Origin: Pezizomycotina sp. ARF18
Lineage: Eukaryota > Ascomycota
Direction of reading: 5' to 3'
Assembly: GCA_002224055.1 (NCBI GenBank)
Contig: AZLU01000302.1
Coordinates: 1 to 40,656 of the forward strand
Length of the DNA stretch: 40,656 nucleotides
In this document: piece after piece, positions 27,712 to 40,656 of the stretch
Position numbering within the stretch: the stretch's first letter is position 1
Layout: every line of letters begins with the position of its first letter
Position numbers and translations under genes: made by a program
The notes under the pieces: model-generated
Told to the model about the DNA's origin: nothing
Seen by the model: the letters and a program-made list of their open reading frames with translations, nothing else
The model's database searches: none

Positions 27712-29519
27712 ATGGTAGAACCGGCAGGCAAGAACGACACGACGGCCTCGGTAGCGATGCCACGAACGGCGAGGCAGCTACAGCAACTGGAGCATCGAAT
27801 AGAAACGATGCCCCAAGGGCGGCAGTGGTGGTAAACCCTCAGATCCTCAACCCAGACACCGACCAGGAAGATGACGAGGACGAAGGGCCTCCGCCAGAGT
27901 AATCGCAACGGATGAAGGTGTGAAGTAGCTCATTTTTACCCTATATTTCTTTCTATCTCTACCGCTGTACATATTATTCAACGTGCTTTCCCATCCAGAG
28001 TCACGGATTACTGTTGTCCACAGTTTACTGATAACCGCAATATAGATCTTTTAAACGATTACCCGCCCGATTCTGAAGTAAGACATTTTAAGGAAACGAA
28101 ACTCCATTTCTAAAAACCAAAAAAAGAAAAAAACCCACCACCCCAATTTTATGACTCCGTGCTACGATGTATCAACAATCATTACTATTCAACACGCTAA
28201 ACCCACTTCCGCCTTTGCTTCTTTCCTCTCCATATATATCCCGCGGATAAAACCTTCGTCGAAATTATTCGCTGCTGGTGTTTGCTAATGATGACTTTCC
28301 TGGCTGTACCCCCCAGGACATAGACCTCGTACACATGCGAGTATCGTCCATTCCATCTCTTGGTCTCCACCGCTTCAAGAACGTACAAAAGCTTTGCCTC
28401 CGACAAAACCAAATATCGCGGATTGAAGGGCTCGACACCCTCGCGGACACGCTCCAGGACGTAGACCTTTATGATAACAGTATATCGCATATCAGTCACG
28501 GCCTGCTTTCCCTAACGAACCTCACGAGCTTGGACCTCAGCTTCAACGCGATCAAGCACATCCGCAATGTCGAGACGCTAGTGAAGCTGAAAAATATATA
28601 TTTCGCCCAGAATAAAATATCCAAGATTGAAAATCTCGAGAAGCTGGTGGAATTGACAAACCTGGAGCTAGGAGCCAATAGAATCAGGGTAGGGAAAATA
28701 TCCGCGGCAGTCTACTTGAAAAAAAGAAAGAAAGAAAGAAAGAAAAAAAAAAGAAAAATAAATAAATAAATAAATAAATAAACAATTAGACTAACTATCG
28801 CGGGGTTTTTTTTGTAGGAAATTGAGAATCTGGAAACTCTTACAAAACTGGAAGAACATGGCTTGGGAAGAACAAGATTATTGAAATAAAGGTTCCACAC
28901 CACAACCCTCGTCATTTATTTGTATGTCCCATGCTAACTGCACTCGCAAGAACATCTCTCCTCTTGCAAACCTTAAGATCCTATCAATGCCGTCGAACAG
29001 GCTTACCTTCATATCCGGTCTAGAGGGCCTATCGAACCTAGAAGAACTATATCTTTCACACAATGCCATTGAGCAGGTTTCTGGCCTTGACAATACGGTT
29101 AGCCGCCTGTTTTTGAGCTGCTGCAGTAATAAAACAATATTGCTAATTCGCAATTGATTTGTTAGCCAAATCTGCGGTAATAGACATTTCCGCCAACCGC
29201 ATACAACATTTGAGCGGTTTAGGTCATCTCACGCACCTAGAGGAGCTGTGGGCTTCAGAGAATCAACTGTCGTCGTTCGCCGAAGTCGAAAGCGAACTCA
29301 GAAACAAGGCTGAGCTCACTACGGTATACTTTGAGCAGAACCCGTTACAGACTGAAAACCGGGCTACCTACCGCAACAAGGTTCGGCTAGCGTTGCCTCA
29401 GATCAAACAGATCGACGCCAGTACGTCTTCTCCCAGCCCTTTGCTTGTTACCATACAGCATTGTTTCGCCTACTGACGTGATATTGAATCGTGCAATAGC
29501 ATTCGTAACCACAGCATGA
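27712..29519 (+). CDS. sds22: Sds22, leucine-rich-repeat regulatory subunit of protein phosphatase 1
   Basis: PP1 regulator acting on the nuclear/cytoplasmic PP1 catalytic subunit. The acidic N-terminus NPDTDQEDDEDEGPPPE is typical of fungal Sds22. It is followed by tandem 22-residue LRRs of the SDS22 class (LCLRQNQISRIEGLD, LTSLDLSFNAIKHI, LKNIYFAQNKISKIENLEK, LELGANRI, LKILSMPSNRLTFISGLE, LEELYLSHNAIEQVSGLD, IDISANRIQHLSGL, LEELWASENQLSS) and the C-terminal cap with YFEQNPLQ and RNKVRLALPQIKQIDA. I place seven exons: introns 27918-28045, 28078-28316, 28689-28817, 28892-28950, 29098-29165 and 29421-29499, most with CTAAC/CTGAC-like branch sites. The final exon gives TFVTTA and a TGA at 29517-29519. 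Four single-base losses break the frame: at 27756 and 27899 (lost G), 28857 (probably C) and 29176-29177 (lost G). Length, about 350 residues, fits the family. Intron 28689-28817 contains AAAG/AAAT microsatellites. Confidence 0.95.
28721..28783. repeat. AAAG and AAAT microsatellite inside an sds22 intron
   Basis: Tandem aaag units followed by aaat units, entirely within the intron at 28689-28817. Confidence 0.85.
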
Positions 29520-30040: not shown

Positions 30041-31102
30041 TTACTCAACGTCTACACCTTTGATCAAGGTCTTAATGCCCTTGCCTTGTTTGACGTTCTT
30101 AAAAGCTTCTTCAGCGTCCTTGAATGCAACCTGACCGGTAATGAGCTCCTTCACACTGACTCTTTTATCCTCCAAAAGCGCCACGGCCGTCGCGTAATCT
30201 CCGGGACCATATCTAAAAGACCCTTTGAACGTCAACTCCTTCGCTATCATCTTTGCCACGGGAACTGGATTTCGTCTTTGCCCATTCCAGCCTGCACGAA
30301 CGTTCCTCCCTTTTTAGCGACTTTGATTCCTGTGGCTATGCTGGGTTCCGCCCCCGATGCATCGATGACAATGTCGGCGCCGGCTCCAAGCCCGTTCTCA
30401 TCGATGATCCTGGCAGCGTTCTCAGAGGGTTTCGAGTCCCTTGACGGGTGAATGTTCCCGTGGCCACAGCGTACTCGTTCTTCGCAAAGTCCAGGCGAGA
30501 CTGCACGATATCCGCCGCCACAACTTTCGACGCCCCGAACGCCTTCGCGACGGCGCAGCACAGCAGCCCCACAGGTCCCGCTCCGAATACCACGACGGAT
30601 TGCCCCGGCCGGACGTCCGCGAGGCGAACGACGTGCACGGCCACGCTCAGCGGTTCCACCACGGCCCCTTCCTCGAGGCTGACGTGCTCGGGCAGCTTGT
30701 AGCAGAATTCCTCGGGCAAGACGTAGTACTTCGTCAGCGTGCCGTCGTACGGCGGCGTGGCGGCGAACCTCATGTCGTCACACAGGTTGTATTTCCCCTT
30801 TATGCACTGAACACAGTGTTGGCACGGGACTCCCGGTTCCATCGCTACCCTGTCCCCGACTTTTAGGTTTTTGCAGTCCGGGGAGACTGAGGTTACGATC
30901 CCGGAGGATTCGTGGCCGAGGATCATGGGTTTCGTGACGACATATTCGCCGATGCGGCCTTCGACCCAGTAGTGCACGTCGGAGCCGCAGATGCCTGTGT
31001 ATTTTACCTCGACGAGGACTTCGCGGGGGTTTGACAGGTAGGGGTGGGTCTTTCTTCGAAGACGATATCATCTTTGGCGCGGAGGATGAACGCGAGGTGC
31101 TG
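30041..31102 (-). CDS. zinc-dependent sorbitol/xylitol-type dehydrogenase (MDR family)
   Basis: NAD-linked polyol dehydrogenase oxidising sorbitol or xylitol to the ketose; cytosolic. Visible motifs, N to C: LAFILRAKDDIVFEERP; the catalytic-zinc region with GICGSDVHYW and GHESSG; the structural-zinc cysteines in CQHCVQCIKGKYNLC; FAATPPYDGTLTKYYVLPEE; the Rossmann motif VFGAGPVGLLC with a following Asp (AADIVQSRLDFAK) that fits NAD preference; GADIVIDASGAEPSI; and a C-terminus with FKGSFRYGPGDY ending at a TAA at 30041-30043. Three single-base losses break the frame, each in a C run of the coding strand (plus-strand G runs at 31037-31038, 30446-30448 and 30260-30262). The first few codons seem to be on an upstream exon: an acceptor (attag) precedes the CAG-CAC-CTC at 31102, but no start ATG is certain. 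Sorbitol versus xylitol preference cannot be decided by eye; L-arabinitol dehydrogenase is less likely. Confidence 0.93.
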
Positions 31103-32272
31103 CTAATTTTATAGTACATTCCGTTTAGAATTAGAATTCTGAGATATATACTTAAGTACCAAAGGGAAAGAAACGAGTAGTATTACATGGACGGATGGGA
31201 AGACGTTTATTTTATACCTTTTCGTTTGCCATTTTTGGCTGGAAAAGAAGTATTTCTATCGCTTTATCTCTTATCTCTTCTTATCGTACCACTTCAATTC
31301 GACCAAGCAGTTATAAGTGTCAAATACAACGTTCCTCCCTTTGCAAAATTGAAAAAGAAGATTGAATCGTTTAGAGTATTGCGACTTGTGCTTGCCCTTT
31401 ATATCCACACCTATATGACGACGATATGACTTTCGAATTGCCTTTCGGCTTCCAATAACATTTACGGCATCTCCGCCCGTTGGAACAAATTCTTTCAAGC
31501 TACTGTAGAAATTGCAAGGGGGATGGATATGTTGAGCGATATGGTGGGGGGAGACCAAAACGAAAGGAAGAAAAAAAAAGGAAAAAGAAAGAAAGAAAAT
31601 TAGTTCCCTCGTCGGAACCCCATCCGGTATATTTAAGTAAGTGAGAGGCGTTTTGAGTGCATAAAGTATTCGAAAAGCAGGGCATTTTTAGGCAGAGAGA
31701 GACATTTCTACCCCAGAGCTATATTTTTGAAGGAAGCCTGCCACGATTCACCAAGTTCACTCCGGGGGTAATAATCCGCCTAACAATTGTTACACAAAAT
31801 GCCTGTGTGCACGCACGCACCGCTCCAGTGCGTACAGGGAGGACACTCGTCGGTATATATCAAGAACCAGTCTATACTACTTTATATTTGAGAATAATTG
31901 CTGGCACACAATGTAAGGAACCTGTATTATATATAAAGAAGAAAAGCATATGTCATGTTGAAGTGAAGTGAGCAACTAAACAAATAAGGTGTAGCAGTGG
32001 TCTTTGTATATTCATCGGGATCTGAACTTTGGTAGACTCGTGGTTCTGAATCCATTTCGTCTTAAGCATCTCAAGACAGCAGATATATAATACACGAAGT
32101 CTCAAAATTAATATAGACCTGCAGAATAGAGGAGAGAAATTGAAATATTCGTATTCGCTTTGACTCGAGGAAGTACTGTATCCCTCCCTTCGTCCTTCGA
32201 ATACCGTGAAGCATGTCTCGTCTGTCGTGATCGTATAAGTTCTGCGTGGTGCAAAAAATCAAAAATTCCATC
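31103..32272. other. intergenic region, no gene seen
   Basis: Upstream of the dehydrogenase; probably holds its promoter and first short exon. Frames of 61-104 codons on both strands are not protein-like enough to call. Confidence 0.45.
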
Positions 32273-32537
32273 TCATTTTATGGAATCTGAGTTCGACCCG
32301 TTTTGTTTTCCTTCATCGTTTGTCTTTAACGAAACATCTTCGTCTCCCTTTGCTTTCTCCGAAGGAGCTGCCACCTCAGCCGCCGCCAGAGCGAAGGAAT
32401 CTGATATGTCGATATCCGAATATCTTTAATGCCGTACGTATAGTCATTTCCGCCCGAACGGCTAGTAGTTTGATCGCAACGGCAAGGCCCTTCAGCGGCT
32501 CGACAGACACGTAGCTGCTGCCGTTTTTACCGGGCAT
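32273..32537 (-). CDS. small unrecognised protein, frame-shifted
   Basis: Minus strand. An ATG at 32535-32537 (context cacaaccATG) opens a frame reading GSSYVSVEPLKGLAVAIKLL. After a frame change the sequence continues DIDISDSFALAAAEVAAP and then a hydrophilic tail with SLKTNDEGKQNGSNSDSIK, ending at a TGA at 32273-32275. Two lost G in short G runs (the second near 32416-32417) would connect the parts into about 88 residues. Composition is clearly coding on this strand, better than the plus-strand frames that overlap it. No family is recognised. It is divergent from the next gene. Confidence 0.5.
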
Positions 32538-32742
32538 GGTTGTGATATATATCGGTCGAATATATATATTAAAAATGGCCGCATGGAAGGAAATATTCGA
32601 ACACGACTAAGGAGGGCAAGCAATTAGGGATCCTCAAAAGCTCAAATCCTTGCTTGAAAACAGTTAGGCAGATGTAACAAATATATTATAGCAATATTGA
32701 TCAAATATACGTATATTAAGTTGAAGAACAAAGAATTACCGC

Positions 32743-33274
32743 GATATCGCCCAAGAGGCGCACAATACGATTAAAATCAAACACAAGGCTGAGTTTTATC
32801 GCATCGGTCGAACGGAATCGCTAGTGGGATATAACTTTTTCTTCAGATTTGATAAACAAATCGTACTTGTGAATGTTCAGTTTCTTGACTATCCCTAGGA
32901 TGATCAGGAGGCTTTTGAGAATACTGGTATGGAGGGAGCTTACCTCCCACGTCCTCTTGGCCCTAATCCTCCTGCTGCATTGCATGCTTAAAAGTGCGGT
33001 TTGTTGTTCGAAGGAAAAGGAGCGGTCAGAAGGACGCGGTATACATCATTAACGCGGAGCGAGAGATAGTTGATCCTTTCAACGCGGCCGCGGGCGCGCT
33101 GAGCTTCGAAGTAGGTTGATTCAGATAGTCAAAGAGGTAAATCCTTCGTATAAATTGATTATATAATATTCAAAATAGGTGTTTATAAAAAGTGGAATCT
33201 TGGTAGAAGCTTCGACGATGGAAAGATATGTTGAAATGGATCGTGTTCGTTCCCTGGCCCCGTTAGCAGGATAA
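32743..33274 (+). CDS. unrecognised protein, two or more exons, partial 5' end
   Basis: A plus-strand frame from at least 32743 reads AHNTIKIKHKAEFYRIGRTE, then SLVGYNFFFRFDKQ, meets an in-frame TAG at 32896-32898, and continues in the same frame with DDQEAFENTGMEGAYLPRP and LGPNPPAALHA. A lost C near 33000 restores the frame to GQKDAVYIINAEREIVDP and on to LSFE. An intron (33111-33178, donor GTAGGT, acceptor aaaatag) leads to a last exon, VFIKSGILVEASTMERYVEM and on, with a TAA at 33272-33274. The upstream start is not resolved; a frame change near 32741 suggests the coding region begins earlier. The TAG could lie in a very short intron (32863-32898, 36 bases). I do not recognise the family. 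Confidence 0.45.
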
Positions 33275-35424
33275 TGCAGAGATCCTTAAAAAATGAATAC
33301 GCTACGAACTTTGGTACGGTTACTACATGGTCATAAGATTTACCTTGCAACGCTGTAGATCAGCTGTAATTCAACTTGCAAGTTTAATATCAACCAAACT
33401 CTACAAGATGGAAACGATAGGTTATTTGTCTTTGCTTTTTTCTTTTTCGTTATATATATCAAACTTTCGCTTCGAGCTCGCGATTTCACTTCCTGCGGGA
33501 GGCGAACATGAAAAACTGCGGGGTCGAAAGCAAAACTTAACCTTAGTATACTAGGTATCTAGCCGCCGACAACCCTCTTCTCTATAGACGACATGTAATC
33601 AATTATTATTATTATTATTATTATTGGTAAATAAATAATATACAGCCTGGATTTAGGGCGGAGAAGGAAGAAAAAACGAGATAAGGAAGGGGGATATTGG
33701 GAGGCTTTGAACTCAGCCTTTTGGATAATTTTGAGAATAATTACGTCTACCAAAAACGAAACTACGGATCGCCTCAGAAAAGTAAACATAATTATTTATA
33801 TTTAAATAAAAAGTGATTCGCCTTGATAATATTCTGAAATAGCTCCGCCTTATATCCGATACCGTTTGCCATCAACATACAATCCAGCTTTTTCTAATTT
33901 CTTGTTCTTATTTGCCTCTCGATCAATTAAGGAGTCAGCGTCGTTGCGTGGACTTCGATTCCGGAGACAAAAGCGGATAGGAAGAATTACGCCCGATATC
34001 ACCTTTTTATAATTACATTGGCTTTATTGTTACAATGGACTACTGAAAGATGGCCTAAAAGCAGAGACTGATCAATCGCTGGCTTCCCGGCTTGCAGCTT
34101 GCTTGATGACATATATGTAAAGAATTGGATTCAGAAAAGATATCAGATCAAATCTGCTTCTAAGCTTCCGAGTATTTAGTTATTTAGAATTCATTATTTG
34201 GAATCAAAATAGTTACTTACTAGTATATATTTATATATATGGAATTTACGATGACTGGCTAGGTAGTTTAGACTTGGAAGATTTCATCATTCCTAATATA
34301 TACAACTCTTGTGACCTAAGATATAATACGGGACGAGAGTGTACATGAAAAAACACCAAGTAGCGATAGTTAATAAAAGCTTCTTTCTTTTCAAATTCAT
34401 CGAATTCTCTCTCTTCGAATTTCTCTTGAGCTTTTTTTATTATTTGTTTATTTTTTTGTTCCTTTGGGAGCTCGAGCTGTAAGCAAAGGACTGATCGCCA
34501 CGTGTGCTCGGATACGGCTGACGTAAAAACCGGGCGGATACCACTAGATCTTCAAAATTATAATAATATCAAACAAAGAGACAAAGAAATTTCTGAGGGC
34601 GAAATAATTTAAGTAGCTATGAATATATATCAGGCGCCTGAATCGCTCTTTGATTGGAATCCTTTATATTATCATTGGCGCGATGCCGTGGCGGTGATTC
34701 GGGGCCAACACTAAGGCAAGCGAAAGTTGAAAGATCGCCGAACCAACCGAGGTGTCCGCCAATGTTCCATGACGTTGAGAAGGAGATACATTTGAGCAGA
34801 ATTAAAGAGAAAAAGTATCATCCGTTCATTCTCAACTGCGAAGGAGGAAATATAATAATGGATTACGACGGATAAGCCGACGACGATATTACCCCAACTT
34901 TCCAAGCAAATGCTTGTTCTTTTTCGTTTTCTTTTCTTTTTCCTTAATTCATTCCGCCAATTACCGTCCATCGATGGAGTCGTAACAGAAAAGGTCCTGT
35001 CCCTAACTTCCTTATTGTGCATCGATACGGCCGAAAGTATTGTCATTATTGTAAAGTCTCTGATGTTTCATCTTATTAGTGTAACCGTTATTTTTTTTTT
35101 TTTTAAAAAAAAAAAAAAAAGTAAGCACTAAAACCCATTCCGAGACCATTTTTATACGTCTGCTGTTCCTGGTGGAAGAGATTCCCCCGGATGTCGCAGA
35201 GGGCGATGATGCAAACCATGGGATTATCCCTACTTCCTGTGGGGTCTAAAGAATCAGGGTGTTTCTGGTTTCCGCACAATTTTCATTATTCTAGAAGTTC
35301 CATGTTTACCCGTTGGCTGTTTGAAGGTTTTGCATAGCCATTGTCAGAAATAGAAATCGTATATACAGAAGTACGCGAATGTAAGTATGCGAACGTATCA
35401 AACGTGGGAGCTGGCTTCCTGGTT
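33275..35424. other. intergenic region, no gene seen
   Basis: AT-rich. Includes a (TTA)n microsatellite at 33605-33627 and a T/A homopolymer block near 35,090-35,120. No convincing frames. Confidence 0.5.
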
Positions 35425-35432
35425 TATAAATA
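35425..35432 (+). promoter_or_regulatory. TATA box of the cystine-knot precursor gene
   Basis: TATAAATA lies 169 bases upstream of the ATG at 35601, in otherwise mixed sequence. The distance would give a leader of about 100-140 bases. A consensus TATA box fits an inducible, highly expressed secreted-peptide gene; that inference is mine. Confidence 0.5.
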
Positions 35433-35600
35433 CACCGGCAGCACGAGACCCGAAGGATAGAAATATCAGTTTTCTAAAATCAAAGGTGGAAGGAACTGAA
35501 AAGTTCATACGCAATATCCTTTACTATTTCCCTCGTTACAATCTGCATCACAGTACAAGAGCATCCAAGTCCTATCCTTCGTATATTAATCACAACTATC

Positions 35601-36410
35601 ATGAAGTTCCTATCCGCTCTCCTTCTCGCCTCCGCTGTTGTCGCTTCAGCGGTACCAGAGCCTTTACAAGAGGAAGGCATTTGCGTTAAGAGAGGCAGTA
35701 AGTAAAGAATAGTCTGCAATGCCCCTATCTAATGTCAGAGAGAGGATATAGCCAAACGTTGAAACAAAGAATTGAATAAAACAATAATAACATGGAGATG
35801 TTTGAGATGACGCTGATGAAATCCTTTCTTCCCCCTTTTCTTTGCTTTAATTTTTAGACCTCTGCAAAGGAACAGATAAATGCTGCGGCGGGCTTCTGTG
35901 CTACGGCTTCGGCGGCGAAAAGTCTCGTTGCCGTTTCCTGTCAAGAGAGATCTCGGATCTATCGAAGAACGAGACAACTGCGTACCACGTAACCGTAAGA
36001 TTTCCCATAGTCCCCTTCGATTAATATATACGTATATACTAATGAACTTCTCAATTATTTAAGATAAATGCAAACCGCACGACAAGTGCTGCGGGGGCCT
36101 CTTATGCTACGGAATGGAGAAGAACCTCGCTGCCGCTTTCCCGTAAGGAGGCGTGACATCGAGTCAATTGAGGAACGAGATACATGCAAGGGCTTAACCG
36201 TAAGATTCCAATACCCGCCATGCATGCTGCTCTATTCTCCTGGGATTAAATCGACAGATGCTAACGTTATTACCTGGGCGCGTTAAAGAGAAGTGCAGCT
36301 CGACTCGGGAGTGCTGCAGTAGATTCCTCTGCTACGGTTTCGGCGGAAGCCCTCGCCTCTGCCGTTTCCCGGTAGAAAGGAGAGATACTGTTTCTGAAGT
36401 CGATGCTTAA
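35601..36410 (+). CDS. secreted three-repeat knottin-like precursor with dibasic processing sites, frame-broken
   Basis: Four exons (35601-35697, 35858-35994, 36064-36199, 36289-36410; introns 35698-35857, 35995-36063, 36200-36288). Exon 1 encodes a typical signal peptide (MKFLSALLLASAVVASA) and the first cysteine of repeat 1. Each later exon carries the remaining five cysteines of one repeat. Repeat 1 shows C-x6-C-x5-CC-x4-C-x9-C, the spacing of inhibitor cystine-knot peptides; repeats 2 and 3 share it closely, with the core CCGGLLCYG or CCSRFLCYGFGG. After the last cysteine each repeat has a Phe and then a basic pair or triplet, where Kex2-type cleavage is likely, and an acidic spacer. All introns fall at the same point between the first two cysteines. 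Three lost bases break the frame (C at 35937-35938, G at 36111-36112, G at 36190-36192). As written, only repeat 1 would be translated, followed by a short aberrant tail. Function is unknown: a defence, signalling or effector peptide is possible. Exact family unidentified. Confidence 0.8.
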
Positions 36411-38673
36411 AGCTCGTACTGAACGAATAACATTGTTATTCTTGTATCAAAAGCGCCATTTGCTTGCAAGCATGCTTTAGCGTGTGGGAAAGAGTCCGAT
36501 GAGAACAATACTAGATTGTAAAAATATTTTATCACGATAGAATTCTTTTCTGAATTTCAGCGAGGAAAAGTCTACTTCTTTGCAATGTAGCTGAACAGAT
36601 TGATTTGTCAGTATCTTCGGAATGTATTTCAGCTAGAACGATAGTCCAAAGCAGTATAGAACACCGCCACGAATTAGTAATAAATTTGGTTTTCGTATCT
36701 CGCTTGATATAAACCATCCCTAAGCATTCTCGCGGATATAAATGCATGAAGGCGCTGCACTGCCCAAATAGCAAATATGTTATTGACGCGAGGTCAATAA
36801 TAAGGCTGTCGCTTGAAGAGCAACAATACAAAACGTATGAGGCTGCAAGCGACTCGTGAAGTTAGGAAAGTCTTTCATGAGCACCTGCTTGCGCCTTTAT
36901 ATATATAGCTATCTATACAAATAAATGGAAAGGAAGTTAAAAAAAAAAAGGAAAGAAAAGAAAGAGAAGAGAAGAAACTAGCGCTCCCAGTTTGGACATT
37001 AGAGGTAGCCCAATCAAATCCCGCAGCAACCTATCCTCAGACGACGAGGGACCGAAAGGAACCAATACCGAGCACCTGGATTGGAGAGCGAGATTTTCAT
37101 TGTGACAAAGATCGGACGGAAGGCTTGAATATGCTCAAGCTGCGCGACCGATTATTGTTGAAGTCTGCAGTACTATTTAGCTACTTAAGTAACATAGTGA
37201 TGAATGTCTGTCTGTAGCCTATATGTAATATTTAGCTAGATAAAAAATAAAAGAGAAAGAAAACTAGGGAACAGGACATTTTGATTTCGGTATTATCACA
37301 TAGCGGTTTTAATATGTGTAAGTAGAATCACGATCGAAGAGCTTATAAGCACAATATTTGGATCATATATACCACGTCTGTTTAGTGACATTAAAGTCTC
37401 ACGAGAAGAGCTCAACTTGGCATAGGGTACTAGATCTTGTACAACTTCTTGGTTCATACCTTCGCGAGAGGAAATTTCGGACGGGTAGGCTAGACAAGGC
37501 TGTCAAGGCAAATACTATTATACTACCGGGTTCCTTGGTCTAGCCATCTCGCGAAGATATACGGAGGGTTAACCTGGGTGTGGTGGGGGGGGGGTCGATC
37601 AATGCGGATCTCACGAACCATTCCAAAGAACTTGGATACCTCCGCGGCAGGAGGCGGCATTGACGTCCGCCGCATCATGCATGGCGTTGCAAAAATCGGG
37701 CGTTTTTTGTTTACCGTCCCCAGCTTTTGGCTTAAAATTGCGAATTAAAATAGAAACGAACTGTAGAAAAAACTAAAATATACACTGCGGAGAAAATAGC
37801 GATCCTATTTGATTGTTTCGTGTTCGTAAGCATAAGAGCTCCAGTCCGCGAAGTTGGCTTGATTTAGTTGGGGTTTTCCCTGAGTCGCTTCCCCATGCCT
37901 TGATCCACCCAGCCTGCCATTCGGTGTGCCGACGCGAGAATTTCTCCAACAGAATGTGTCGTATGTTACATTTATGCACCGAGCGAATAAAGCCCGCCGG
38001 GCCTGGAATGGGAGGGAGGCAAAAGGAGCTCGATCGTTGCGTTGTCTCAAAACCGTACGTTCGAGTGAGAATAGGTCGCTACCTTTCTGCTCTCTATTCT
38101 CGAAATCTTTCAGCTTTTTTGCATAGGCCCGAAATGGCAAATCCATGAAGCTATAGGAGGAGGATCTTAGGAGTGCTGGCCACAAGGCTGAAGGTGAATC
38201 TATTTACTTATACGTATATTACTAGTATTTATCATTGTTATTTGCTAAGTATTTTCCTTTAATTTTTATTTATATTTTGTTTTTCGGTGTGGGTGGCGGC
38301 TTTCTGGTTGGTTGGAGCAAGTTGCTGATGCCACGACACTAGCCTTGTTTTCCCGCGGCCCCGCGTATTTTTTGCTTTTCCCTCCCCAAATTCCCGCTTT
38401 CTACGGCTGAAGGAAAGAATCTTAGCTCCGCCGCGAAAATCGTGAACCCCTTTTAGACGGATCTGTTGAGTTTTAGGAAGAGTAAGGGTTATGCCTAGGT
38501 CCAAGAGCTGCCCGGTGAAAATCATAAAAGCACACGGTATGCTATCGTACACGGTATAGGTATATATATCTAAAAGAAGTCCTACCAAAAAGATATTGTC
38601 GTGTTGAGTGGAAGCTTTCAAAAATTCAGAAAGATATACTGTTTTAGCAGGAAAAGAAATAAAACGCTTTAGA

Positions 38674-38704
<31 letters not shown>

Positions 38705-38780
38705 TGGTACTTACCTACCTTTAAAACTCTTTGACAGTAGTGGCGAATCTACGAAAAAAGGAAAAAACCGCCTTGCAGTC
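36411..38780. other. intergenic region, weak frames only
   Basis: The best candidates are overlapping frames at 37805-38185 (minus, 126 codons) and 37813-38148 (plus, 111 codons), which are antisense to each other; neither has supporting motifs. Also holds a G11-type run near 37,586 and T27 at 38679-38705. Confidence 0.4.
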
Positions 38781-39547
38781 ATGCTAAACACTCAGTCCCA
38801 CAACTGTTTTTCCTTCAACTGGCGGCCATCGTCGTCGACTTTGAGCGGCATCAAGACGCCCCAGTTCAGCAATTACATACACTTCCAGTCTCCCTTCCCT
38901 TCTTCTTCCTCGGCTCCGCGTCCTCGATGCCAAGACACGCACCCGTGCCGATACCTCTGCTGCGGCCGTCGGACCAAGTCGTCTCGAAGTCGTCGCTGCG
39001 GAGCCGAGCGTAGCTAGCTACGCAATGTCAGAGATGGCTGCGTCACAAATGGAACTGTTGGACGATATATCATCCTCGATATAGATGAGGATCTTTCATA
39101 CCAGAATATACCGGATCAAACGGAGAGCGGGAGGTAGATGAGGAGGAAAATTAGGAGATGGGTAAGCAGCGTCAGCAGCCAACGCCTCTCCAGCGGTTCT
39201 TGGAAGATGAGACGGACTCCGACGTCAGGGTGCACAGTATACCTACCGCTCCTCAGGAATCGGCAGCGGGCGAAGAGTGCATAGTGGAAGGAGAAGATCT
39301 GCAGATGATAATGGAGGAGGACGAACTGGAAGATGAAAATGACCGCCTACCGACCGACCAGGAAGCGGAAACGGAAGCGGAGCATAATAATTCCGGGCTA
39401 TCGTTATCAAGGAGAGGCTCGTTGCTGGACCGGTGGCGGAAAAAAATCTGTTACAGTGGCTGGCGAAGCTTTGGCGGCCAGGACGTACTAGGGGATCTCA
39501 CGGATGATAAGAGGAAGCGGAAGAGGCAGACGTGGGACTTGGAATAA
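38781..39547 (+). CDS. acidic hypothetical protein, several frameshifts
   Basis: A clean 3' part (39158-39547, 129 codons to a TAA) reads TPLQRFLEDETDSDVRVHS, then a long Glu/Asp-rich segment (LQMIMEEDELEDENDRLP), then RRGSLLDRWRKK and a basic end with DDKRKRKRQTWDLE. Upstream, an ATG at 38781 opens a Ser-rich segment (NWRPSSSTLSGIKTPQFSN). Protein-like pieces such as EVVAAEPSVASYAMSEMAAS and IILDIDEDLSYQNIPDQTES follow in successive frames, each change fitting one lost base. An in-frame TAG at 39152-39154 just before the 3' part remains unexplained, so 39158 may be a separate start or lie after an intron. No domain is recognised. A basic C-terminus (KRKRKR) could act in nuclear import. Confidence 0.5.
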
Positions 39548-39950
39548 AAGCAATATAGTTGCTTATCTTCGTTGCCCTTCCTATCATTTTTTTTTTTTTT
39601 TTCATTTTGCATAGCTTGCGGGACCTTTGTATTTTCCGATTCATAGCGATAACTGCACTAATATTATGATACCAGCAGTTTCACAGTCGTGCAATTTCGT
39701 ATAAAGCCGGGGCCTTTTCTTTCTTACTTTTTTTTTTCTTTTTTTTCATATTTATGAAAAATGTTTTGATGGCGCCTGAGCCAGCGGATATTGACACCTT
39801 TGTGATATGCAGAAAGGCAAAACGTGTAGAGCAAACCCACACTTTCTTCCTCTATGAAACAAGGCAAAAAAAATCTTTTCAAGGAAAACGCAAAAACAAA
39901 ACGCCTAATAGTACACCGCGGAATAAAACAATTCCATCTCCTAAAGGAGC

Positions 39951-40656
39951 GACTTCTTGTCGGGCTCAACGCGGACAATCTTGTCACAATTGAGAAGGCA
40001 TTGGGGTCGAAGGCCAGTTTCAACTAGAAAAAAAAGAAGACAAGATTAGTGAAAACGGTAAACGGGGTAGCTAATTAGGAATTGATATTTTTTCTAACTT
40101 ACCCTCCGCATGGCATCAACGTGGTTTGTCCGAGTTCTTTGGGGAGATAATCTCGCTTTATTAATCCTACACCGTGTTCTCCAGTAGTTGTGCCTTCCAT
40201 GGAAATAGCCCTCTCCACCATCCTGTGCACAACGGCCTCAGCGACCTTCCTTTTCTCCTGGCTGAAAGGCAGGATGCAATGGAAGTTGCCATCGCCGACG
40301 TGACCGACGATAGAAGCCAGTGAGATTGTTGGAACTAATATCGTTTTTGGTCTCCTCTATTATATCGGCAGCCTGGATAGCGGGACGGCAACGTCTGTAG
40401 TCCACACCTGGTCATCGTCATGCTCTTTCAGCGCCATGACAGACCACAGGGCCCTTGCGGGCCGACCAGAGTTCCTCCTGCTCCTCCTCCTTATTGGTGC
40501 GAACTCGAACGACTCCGACTTGCAACTCTTCGCTATATCCTTGACTATGGATATCTGCTCTTTAACACCGTTCTGAGTACCGTGAACTTGAAGAAGAGAG
40601 TCGGCCTCTCCTCCACTTCCTGGGTGTGGCCGGTCTGATTTAGGCAGTGCATTTGC
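39951..40656 (-). CDS. dld1: D-lactate dehydrogenase (cytochrome), C-terminal part, cut by window edge
   Basis: FAD-linked oxidase of the DLD1 family, which oxidises D-lactate to pyruvate and passes electrons to cytochrome c at the mitochondrial inner membrane. Reading leftwards from the edge, the segments are EERPTLFFKFT, KSESFEFA, EEEQEELWSARK, QVWTTDVAVPLSRLP, the FAD-oxidase C-terminal signature SIVGHVGDGNFHCILPF, VVHRMVERAISMEG, TTTGEHGVGLIKRDYLPKEL, then an intron (40024-40102) and LKLAFDPNA, with the last residues in a shifted frame before a TAG at 39951-39953. Seven sites with lost bases break it (plus-strand positions near 40580, 40496, 40449-40455, 40367, 40317, 40120 and 39997); two of them appear to lack two bases. 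The FAD-binding N-terminal half and start lie beyond the window. D-2-hydroxyglutarate dehydrogenase is a less likely alternative. Confidence 0.92.

What the first reader, a model, noticed from the sequence alone, without database searches (positions are those of the whole stretch)
35601..36410. Kexin-processed, exon-duplicated precursor of three cystine-knot-like peptides
A signal peptide is followed by three cysteine repeats with knottin-type spacing (repeat 1: C-x6-C-x5-CC-x4-C-x9-C). Each is followed by a basic pair or triplet and an acidic spacer. One phase-1 intron per repeat sits in the same loop, and the exon ends are near-identical (aacc|gtaag). This is the layout of a multi-peptide precursor built by tandem exon duplication. 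Fungal kexin-processed proteins are known, but I do not know of a described family with knottin repeats of this design.
Basis: partly seen in the sequence, partly recalled or inferred. Interest (0 to 1): 0.8.

Follow-up and report, generated by a model that had tools for sequence, protein, structure and literature searches.

The report
Fungal gene with three knottin-like repeats
A fungal gene appears to encode one secreted precursor of three small cysteine-rich, probably knotted peptides, each on its own duplicated exon and followed by a likely cutting site; as sequenced its reading frame is broken, most likely by errors in the assembly.

Summary
At 35601-36410 there is a signal-peptide-like start, three cysteine repeats with cystine-knot spacing, three introns each between the first and second cysteine of a repeat, and KR/RRR/RR after the repeats. 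The exact pattern occurs twice in the window, never in 100 controls. But exons 2 and 3 each change frame inside, and intron 3 reads as phase 0 as sequenced. All five conserved genes I judged in this assembly also change frame, so assembly error is likelier than a pseudogene. Repeats 1 and 2 differ mostly at third codon positions (17 of 26, p = 0.0008). The same genome holds an unnoticed two-repeat paralogue (contig C176) with two phase-1 introns in the same loop; it too changes frame near its end. One kexin gene is present. Best reading: an exon-duplicated multi-knottin precursor cut by Kex2. Fungal knottins and Kex2-cut repeat precursors are known separately; among listed results of nine literature searches I saw no combination. 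Fold, cutting and target are untested. New variant of a known kind.

The parts
35425..35432 (+). TATAAATA, possible TATA box
   Evidence: sequence; by eye
35601..35697 (+). exon 1: signal-peptide-like start (about 35601-35651), short acidic stretch, first cysteine of repeat 1 (35682-35684)
35688..35693 (+). KR inside loop 1 of repeat 1, a caveat for the processing model
35698..35857 (+). intron 1 (160 nt), phase 1, in loop 1 of repeat 1
   Evidence: GTAAGT...TTTTTAG, CTGAT
35858..35994 (+). exon 2: cysteines 2-6 of repeat 1, KR, acidic spacer, first cysteine of repeat 2; changes frame between CRF and PVKR
35943..35948 (+). KR site after repeat 1
35995..36063 (+). intron 2 (69 nt), in loop 1 of repeat 2
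   Evidence: GTAAGATT...ATTTAAG, CTAAT
36064..36199 (+). exon 3: cysteines 2-6 of repeat 2, RRR, acidic spacer, first cysteine of repeat 3; changes frame between CYG and EEPRC
36146..36154 (+). RRR site after repeat 2
36200..36290 (+). intron 3 (91 nt), in loop 1 of repeat 3; phase 0 as sequenced
   Evidence: GTAAGATT...TTAAAGAG, CTAAC; an AG at 36288 is an alternative acceptor
36291..36410 (+). exon 4: cysteines 2-6 of repeat 3, RR, short acidic tail, stop TAA
36378..36383 (+). RR site after repeat 3

Best explanation
A gene for a small secreted precursor that carries three domains of inhibitor-cystine-knot type, built by tandem duplication of an exon that runs from loop 1 of one repeat to the first cysteine of the next. 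Shown: the repeats, the splice-site layout, the basic sites, a kexin gene in the same genome, and a two-repeat paralogue with the same intron position. Inferred: the frame breaks are assembly errors; the precursor enters the secretory pathway, each repeat folds into a disulfide knot, Kex2 cuts after KR/RRR/RR in the late Golgi, the acidic spacers are discarded or stay on the ends, and three related but unlike peptides (repeat 3 differs most) are released. Their targets lie outside the cell and are unknown; antagonism of competitors or interaction with a host are the roles proposed for other fungal knottins.
For: Pattern 2 times in the window, 0 in 100 controls; exon similarity far above controls. 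Repeats 1 and 2: 17 of 26 differences at third codon positions, p = 0.0008, in two pieces each read in its own frame. Paralogue on C176 with signal-peptide-like start, C1-x6-C2-x5-CC in both repeats and two phase-1 introns in loop 1. Kex2-like gene on C56: catalytic motif and membrane tail by eye, P domain 61.7 bits over a cut-off of 21. Frame changes without room for an intron in other genes: actin on C382 three in about 0.8 kb, XDH in the window two in about 1 kb, kexin, and by eye an actin-related gene and a D-lactate-dehydrogenase-like end. Weak PDB hits: 1 of 1, 3 of 4 and 4 of 4 are peptide toxins or channel inhibitors, cysteines in register in the alignments printed.
Confidence: 0.58

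Rival explanations
1. Tandem knottin protein that stays whole: the repeats remain linked and act as a bivalent or trivalent binder, as in double-knot spider toxins.
For: The paralogue's repeats are joined by a short QPKKQTV linker without KR; bivalent spider ICKs exist and their linkers can be short.
Against: The window gene has KR, RRR and RR at the same place in all three repeats, and acidic spacers after two of them.
Confidence: 0.2
2. Pseudogene: the frame changes in exons 2 and 3 are real and the precursor is no longer made.
For: Two frame changes in 490 bases of predicted exons, somewhat denser than in actin (3 in about 0.8 kb) or XDH (2 in about 1 kb); the paralogue changes frame too.
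Against: Five of five conserved genes judged for this change frame in the assembly, among them actin, which a fungus needs; third-position excess shows past constraint in both halves of the repeats; no stop codon inside the cysteine cores.
Confidence: 0.12
3. A different small disulfide fold (WAP-like or colipase-like) rather than an inhibitor cystine knot.
For: The few structural rows include SLPI and omwaprin (WAP proteins) and Dickkopf.
Against: WAP domains have eight cysteines (recalled); here there are six with ICK spacing; sequence hits are mostly ICK-type toxins, all non-significant.
Confidence: 0.15
4. Exon 3 is skipped and the product has two repeats: exons 1, 2 and 4 as sequenced form one open frame to the stop.
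For: Exon 2 as sequenced ends in phase 0 and exon 4 (from 36291) starts in phase 0 (own arithmetic).
Against: Repeat 3 would lose its first cysteine, and the conserved spacer of exon 2 would be read in another frame than the one that shows third-position excess.
Confidence: 0.05

Closest known systems
Fungal knottins (KNOTTIN 'Fungi1' family, Histoplasma and other Onygenales; Avr9; Melampsora MLP124266/AvrP4)
   Same: small secreted fungal proteins with six cysteines of cystine-knot type (passages of PMC4503680, PMC6889267, PMC9632046)
   Different: in the passages read, one C-terminal six-cysteine region; no tandem exon-encoded repeats with dibasic sites.
Kex2-processed repeat proteins (KEPs; Ustilago Rep1, Hum3)
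   Same: secreted, repeats separated by Kex2 motifs (start of abstract and passages of PMC6339444, passages of PMC4617103)
   Different: KEPs are defined by identical or nearly identical repeats, here they are 38-62% alike; peptides in the passages read are amphipathic or have two conserved cysteines, not six-cysteine knots
Bivalent spider ICK toxins (DkTx, Hi1a; 'SCREPs')
   Same: tandem ICK domains; Hi1a is the only, non-significant, PDB hit of exon 2
   Different: animal venom; in the Hc1a subfamily duplication was inside one exon without introns (passages of PMC13172734)
Nasonia naickins and nasonins
   Same: naickins: ICK with an intron before the second cysteine; nasonin-6: one exon per repeat, exon duplication (passages of PMC2853521)
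   Different: insect; the naickin intron is phase 0; nasonin repeats are defensin-like and lack processing signals
Dikaritin RiPP precursors
   Same: signal peptide and tandem repeats (passage of PMC9632046)
   Different: no UstYa gene on this contig: 0 of 4 matches in the genome

Membership tests
Inhibitor cystine knot (knottin) | six cysteines in the order C-C-CC-C-C with ICK loop lengths | tested here: met
   repeat 1 C-x6-C-x5-CC-x4-C-x9-C, repeat 3 C-x5-C-x5-CC-x4-C-x9-C; repeat 2 only in two pieces because of the frame break
Inhibitor cystine knot (knottin) | knotted fold | tested here: inconclusive
Inhibitor cystine knot (knottin) | disulfides 1-4, 2-5, 3-6 | not testable with these tools
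   needs the peptide
Pfam Toxin_12 (PF07740) | score at or above the gathering cut-off of 21 bits | tested here: not met
   14.9 bits for 1 of 5 window pieces, no match for the other 4; 16.9 and 18.3 bits for 2 of 3 paralogue pieces
Kex2-processed repeat protein (KEP) | secretion signal and repeats separated by KR/RR | tested here: met
   signal peptide by eye only
Kex2-processed repeat protein (KEP) | repeats identical or nearly identical | tested here: not met
   38%, 41% and 62% identity between native pieces; so it may work like a KEP but is not filed as one
Kex2-processed repeat protein (KEP) | a kexin in the genome | tested here: met
   one P-domain match over cut-off, spanning four stops, and a Kex2-like catalytic piece before it
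Kex2-processed repeat protein (KEP) | cut peptides | not testable with these tools
   needs mass spectrometry
Dikaritin RiPP | UstYa gene in the cluster | tested here: not met
   4 matches, on C87 and C96, 0 on C302, of which the window is the whole; the contig is only 40.7 kb
KNOTTIN Fungi1 / Avr9 | match to the Fungi1 profile | not tested
   profile not held

The most novel reading that the evidence does not exclude
A fungal lineage has its own family of multi-knottin genes in which an exon bounded inside loop 1 (phase 1) is the unit of duplication, and Kex2 turns one transcript into a set of different knotted peptides: a fungal counterpart to venom-style peptide diversification.
Probability: 0.42. 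Interest if true: 0.65.

Novelty: new variant of a known kind. Interest (0 to 1): 0.5.

Why it matters
If true, it joins two known fungal themes, single-domain knottins and Kex2-cut repeat precursors, into one gene design, with an exon border placed inside the knot so that duplication of the exon always yields complete knots. It also shows how such genes can be missed: the repeats lie on short exons, and indel-rich assemblies break them.

Tried and rejected
Rejected: dikaritin RiPP cluster. Rejected as main reading: pseudogene (see rivals). No relative in viral contigs (17 stretches matched a pattern, 0 confirmed) or in bacterial and archaeal genome contigs (34, 0 confirmed); each scan used one short peptide pattern. 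No Rfam family in the window at gathering score, no tRNA by ARAGORN, no tandem array in 31000-40000 apart from a T run. NCBIfam: one meaningless weak hit for 1 of 3 pieces. Pfam Toxin_27 also appeared below cut-off for one paralogue piece. Foldseek and VIA were run on the exon 4 model only, not on the exon 2 model. That it is a fungus is inferred from actin, Kex2, UstYa and short introns. Literature searches behind 'no paper combines them'; two searches listed only 25 of 178 and 10 of 24 papers, so the claim covers the listed ones.

Full report
What is there. On the + strand at 35601-36410 a short gene can be read: exon 1 (35601-35697), intron 1 (160 nt), exon 2 (35858-35994), intron 2 (69 nt), exon 3 (36064-36199), intron 3 (91 nt) and exon 4 (36291-36410, stop TAA). 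Exon 1 has a signal-peptide-like start and the first cysteine of repeat 1. Each later exon holds cysteines 2 to 6 of one repeat, then a basic site; exons 2 and 3 end with an acidic spacer and the first cysteine of the next repeat. So each intron sits between the first and second cysteine of a repeat.

Is it more than chance? The pattern C.{5}CC.{4}C.{9}C occurs twice in the six frames of the window and 0 times in 100 first-order Markov controls; CC.{4}CYG occurs three times and 0 times in the controls; a relaxed pattern occurs twice against a mean of 0.06. Exon pairs 2/3, 2/4 and 3/4 score 78, 50 and 47 against maxima of 29, 28 and 28 in 300 controls each.

Exon 2 is read in one frame up to CRF and in another from PVKR on; exon 3 in one frame up to CYG and in another from EEPRC on. 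As sequenced, no full three-repeat precursor can be made. Intron 3 is phase 0 as sequenced. Repeat 1 has a KR inside loop 1.

Why the breaks are probably not real. In the window the xylitol-dehydrogenase-like gene (- strand, 31067 to 30044) changes frame twice: the first piece matches 7y9p residues 33-240, a middle piece reads on in a second frame, and the last piece matches 293-372 in a third (the ORF with the middle piece found nothing at E 1e-6, so its identity rests on reading it). The actin gene on C382 is split into matches whose profile positions run on without a gap (43-95, 93-160, 158-282, 268-344) in different frames over about 0.8 kb. The kexin gene changes frame within its catalytic part (by eye), as do an actin-related gene on C15 and the end of a D-lactate-dehydrogenase-like gene (by eye). 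That is five of five conserved genes judged; the leucine-rich-repeat gene in the window was not judged, and no genome-wide rate was measured. In addition, repeats 1 and 2 of the window gene differ at 26 positions over 27 compared codons, 17 of them third codon positions (binomial p = 0.0008), in both halves, each in its own frame. Repeat 3 is more distant: against repeats 1 and 2, 7 and 8 of 15 codons are non-synonymous, and third positions make 10 of 19 and 7 of 18 differences.

A paralogue. Exon 4 as a query found, besides this locus, C176:22632-22736 at E 0.039, and the reverse search returned exon 4 at E 0.019. These E-values alone are weak, and the exon 2 query did not find it. The locus, however, holds a signal-peptide-like start, CALEKAPC, then C-x5-CC-x4-C-x11-C, a short QPKKQTV linker, CESANRRC, and C-x5-CC-x6-C. 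Two GT-AG introns of 67 and 76 nt, both phase 1 and both in loop 1, connect these in one frame; the middle exon is 120 nt. Its second donor, AACC|GTAAG, is like two of the window gene's. After the fifth cysteine of repeat 2 its own frame has no sixth cysteine; a piece in another frame has one (by eye). No further copy was found at E 10 in four searches, whose counts are lower bounds.

What it resembles. Pfam: Toxin_12 below cut-off in 1 of 5 window pieces and in 2 of 3 paralogue pieces, one of which also meets Toxin_27 below cut-off. PDB by sequence: Hi1a at E 3.2; none; three peptide toxins and one unrelated enzyme at E 0.6-4.2; four peptide toxins or channel inhibitors at E 0.45-5.3. None is significant alone; cysteines are in register in the toxin alignments printed. 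Models of exon 4 and exon 2 pieces, with three sequences each, give the same hairpin around cysteines 5 and 6, with low confidence; fold matches of the exon 4 model are weak and mixed between ICK and WAP.

Processing. The genome has one P-domain match (spanning four stop codons) and a Kex2-like catalytic piece before it. KR, RRR and RR follow the last cysteine of the three repeats. No cutting was shown. By the published definition of KEPs the repeats would be identical or nearly so, which these are not (38-62%). UstYa genes lie on other contigs.

Literature. Fungal knottins are described (passages: PMC4503680, PMC6889267, PMC9632046, PMC12099005, PMC12705615, PMC12204505), Kex2-cut repeat proteins too (start of abstract and passages: PMC6339444; passages: PMC4617103). 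Tandem ICK proteins are known in venoms (abstract, outline and passages: PMC6262176; passages: PMC13172734) and exon-duplicated peptide precursors in Nasonia (passages: PMC2853521). Among the papers listed by nine searches of the open-licence library I saw no fungal multi-knottin precursor; two lists were cut (25 of 178, 10 of 24), and most subscription journals are not in that library.

Verdict. An unusual gene family with at least two loci in this genome, most likely functional, best explained as an exon-duplicated multi-knottin precursor. It lies between known kinds, hence a new variant of a known kind, interest 0.5. On re-checking I corrected wording and added results against the reading; the odds did not change.

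Noticed in passing
   Followed up: yes
window 30044-31067, - strand: Xylitol/sorbitol-dehydrogenase-like gene that changes frame twice without an intron; sign of an indel-rich assembly.
   Followed up: yes
window 40102-40656, - strand: FAD-linked oxidase C-terminal domain (D-lactate-dehydrogenase-like by eye); its end seems to change frame.
   Followed up: partly
window 28251-29473, + strand: Leucine-rich-repeat protein in three pieces, SDS22-like by eye.
   Followed up: partly
L007 (G000:C382) and L005 (G000:C15): Actin and an actin-related gene split into several frames.
   Followed up: partly
G000:C87 88916-94127 and C96 141603-141797: UstYa-family matches, three close together on C87: a possible dikaritin RiPP cluster.
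   Followed up: no
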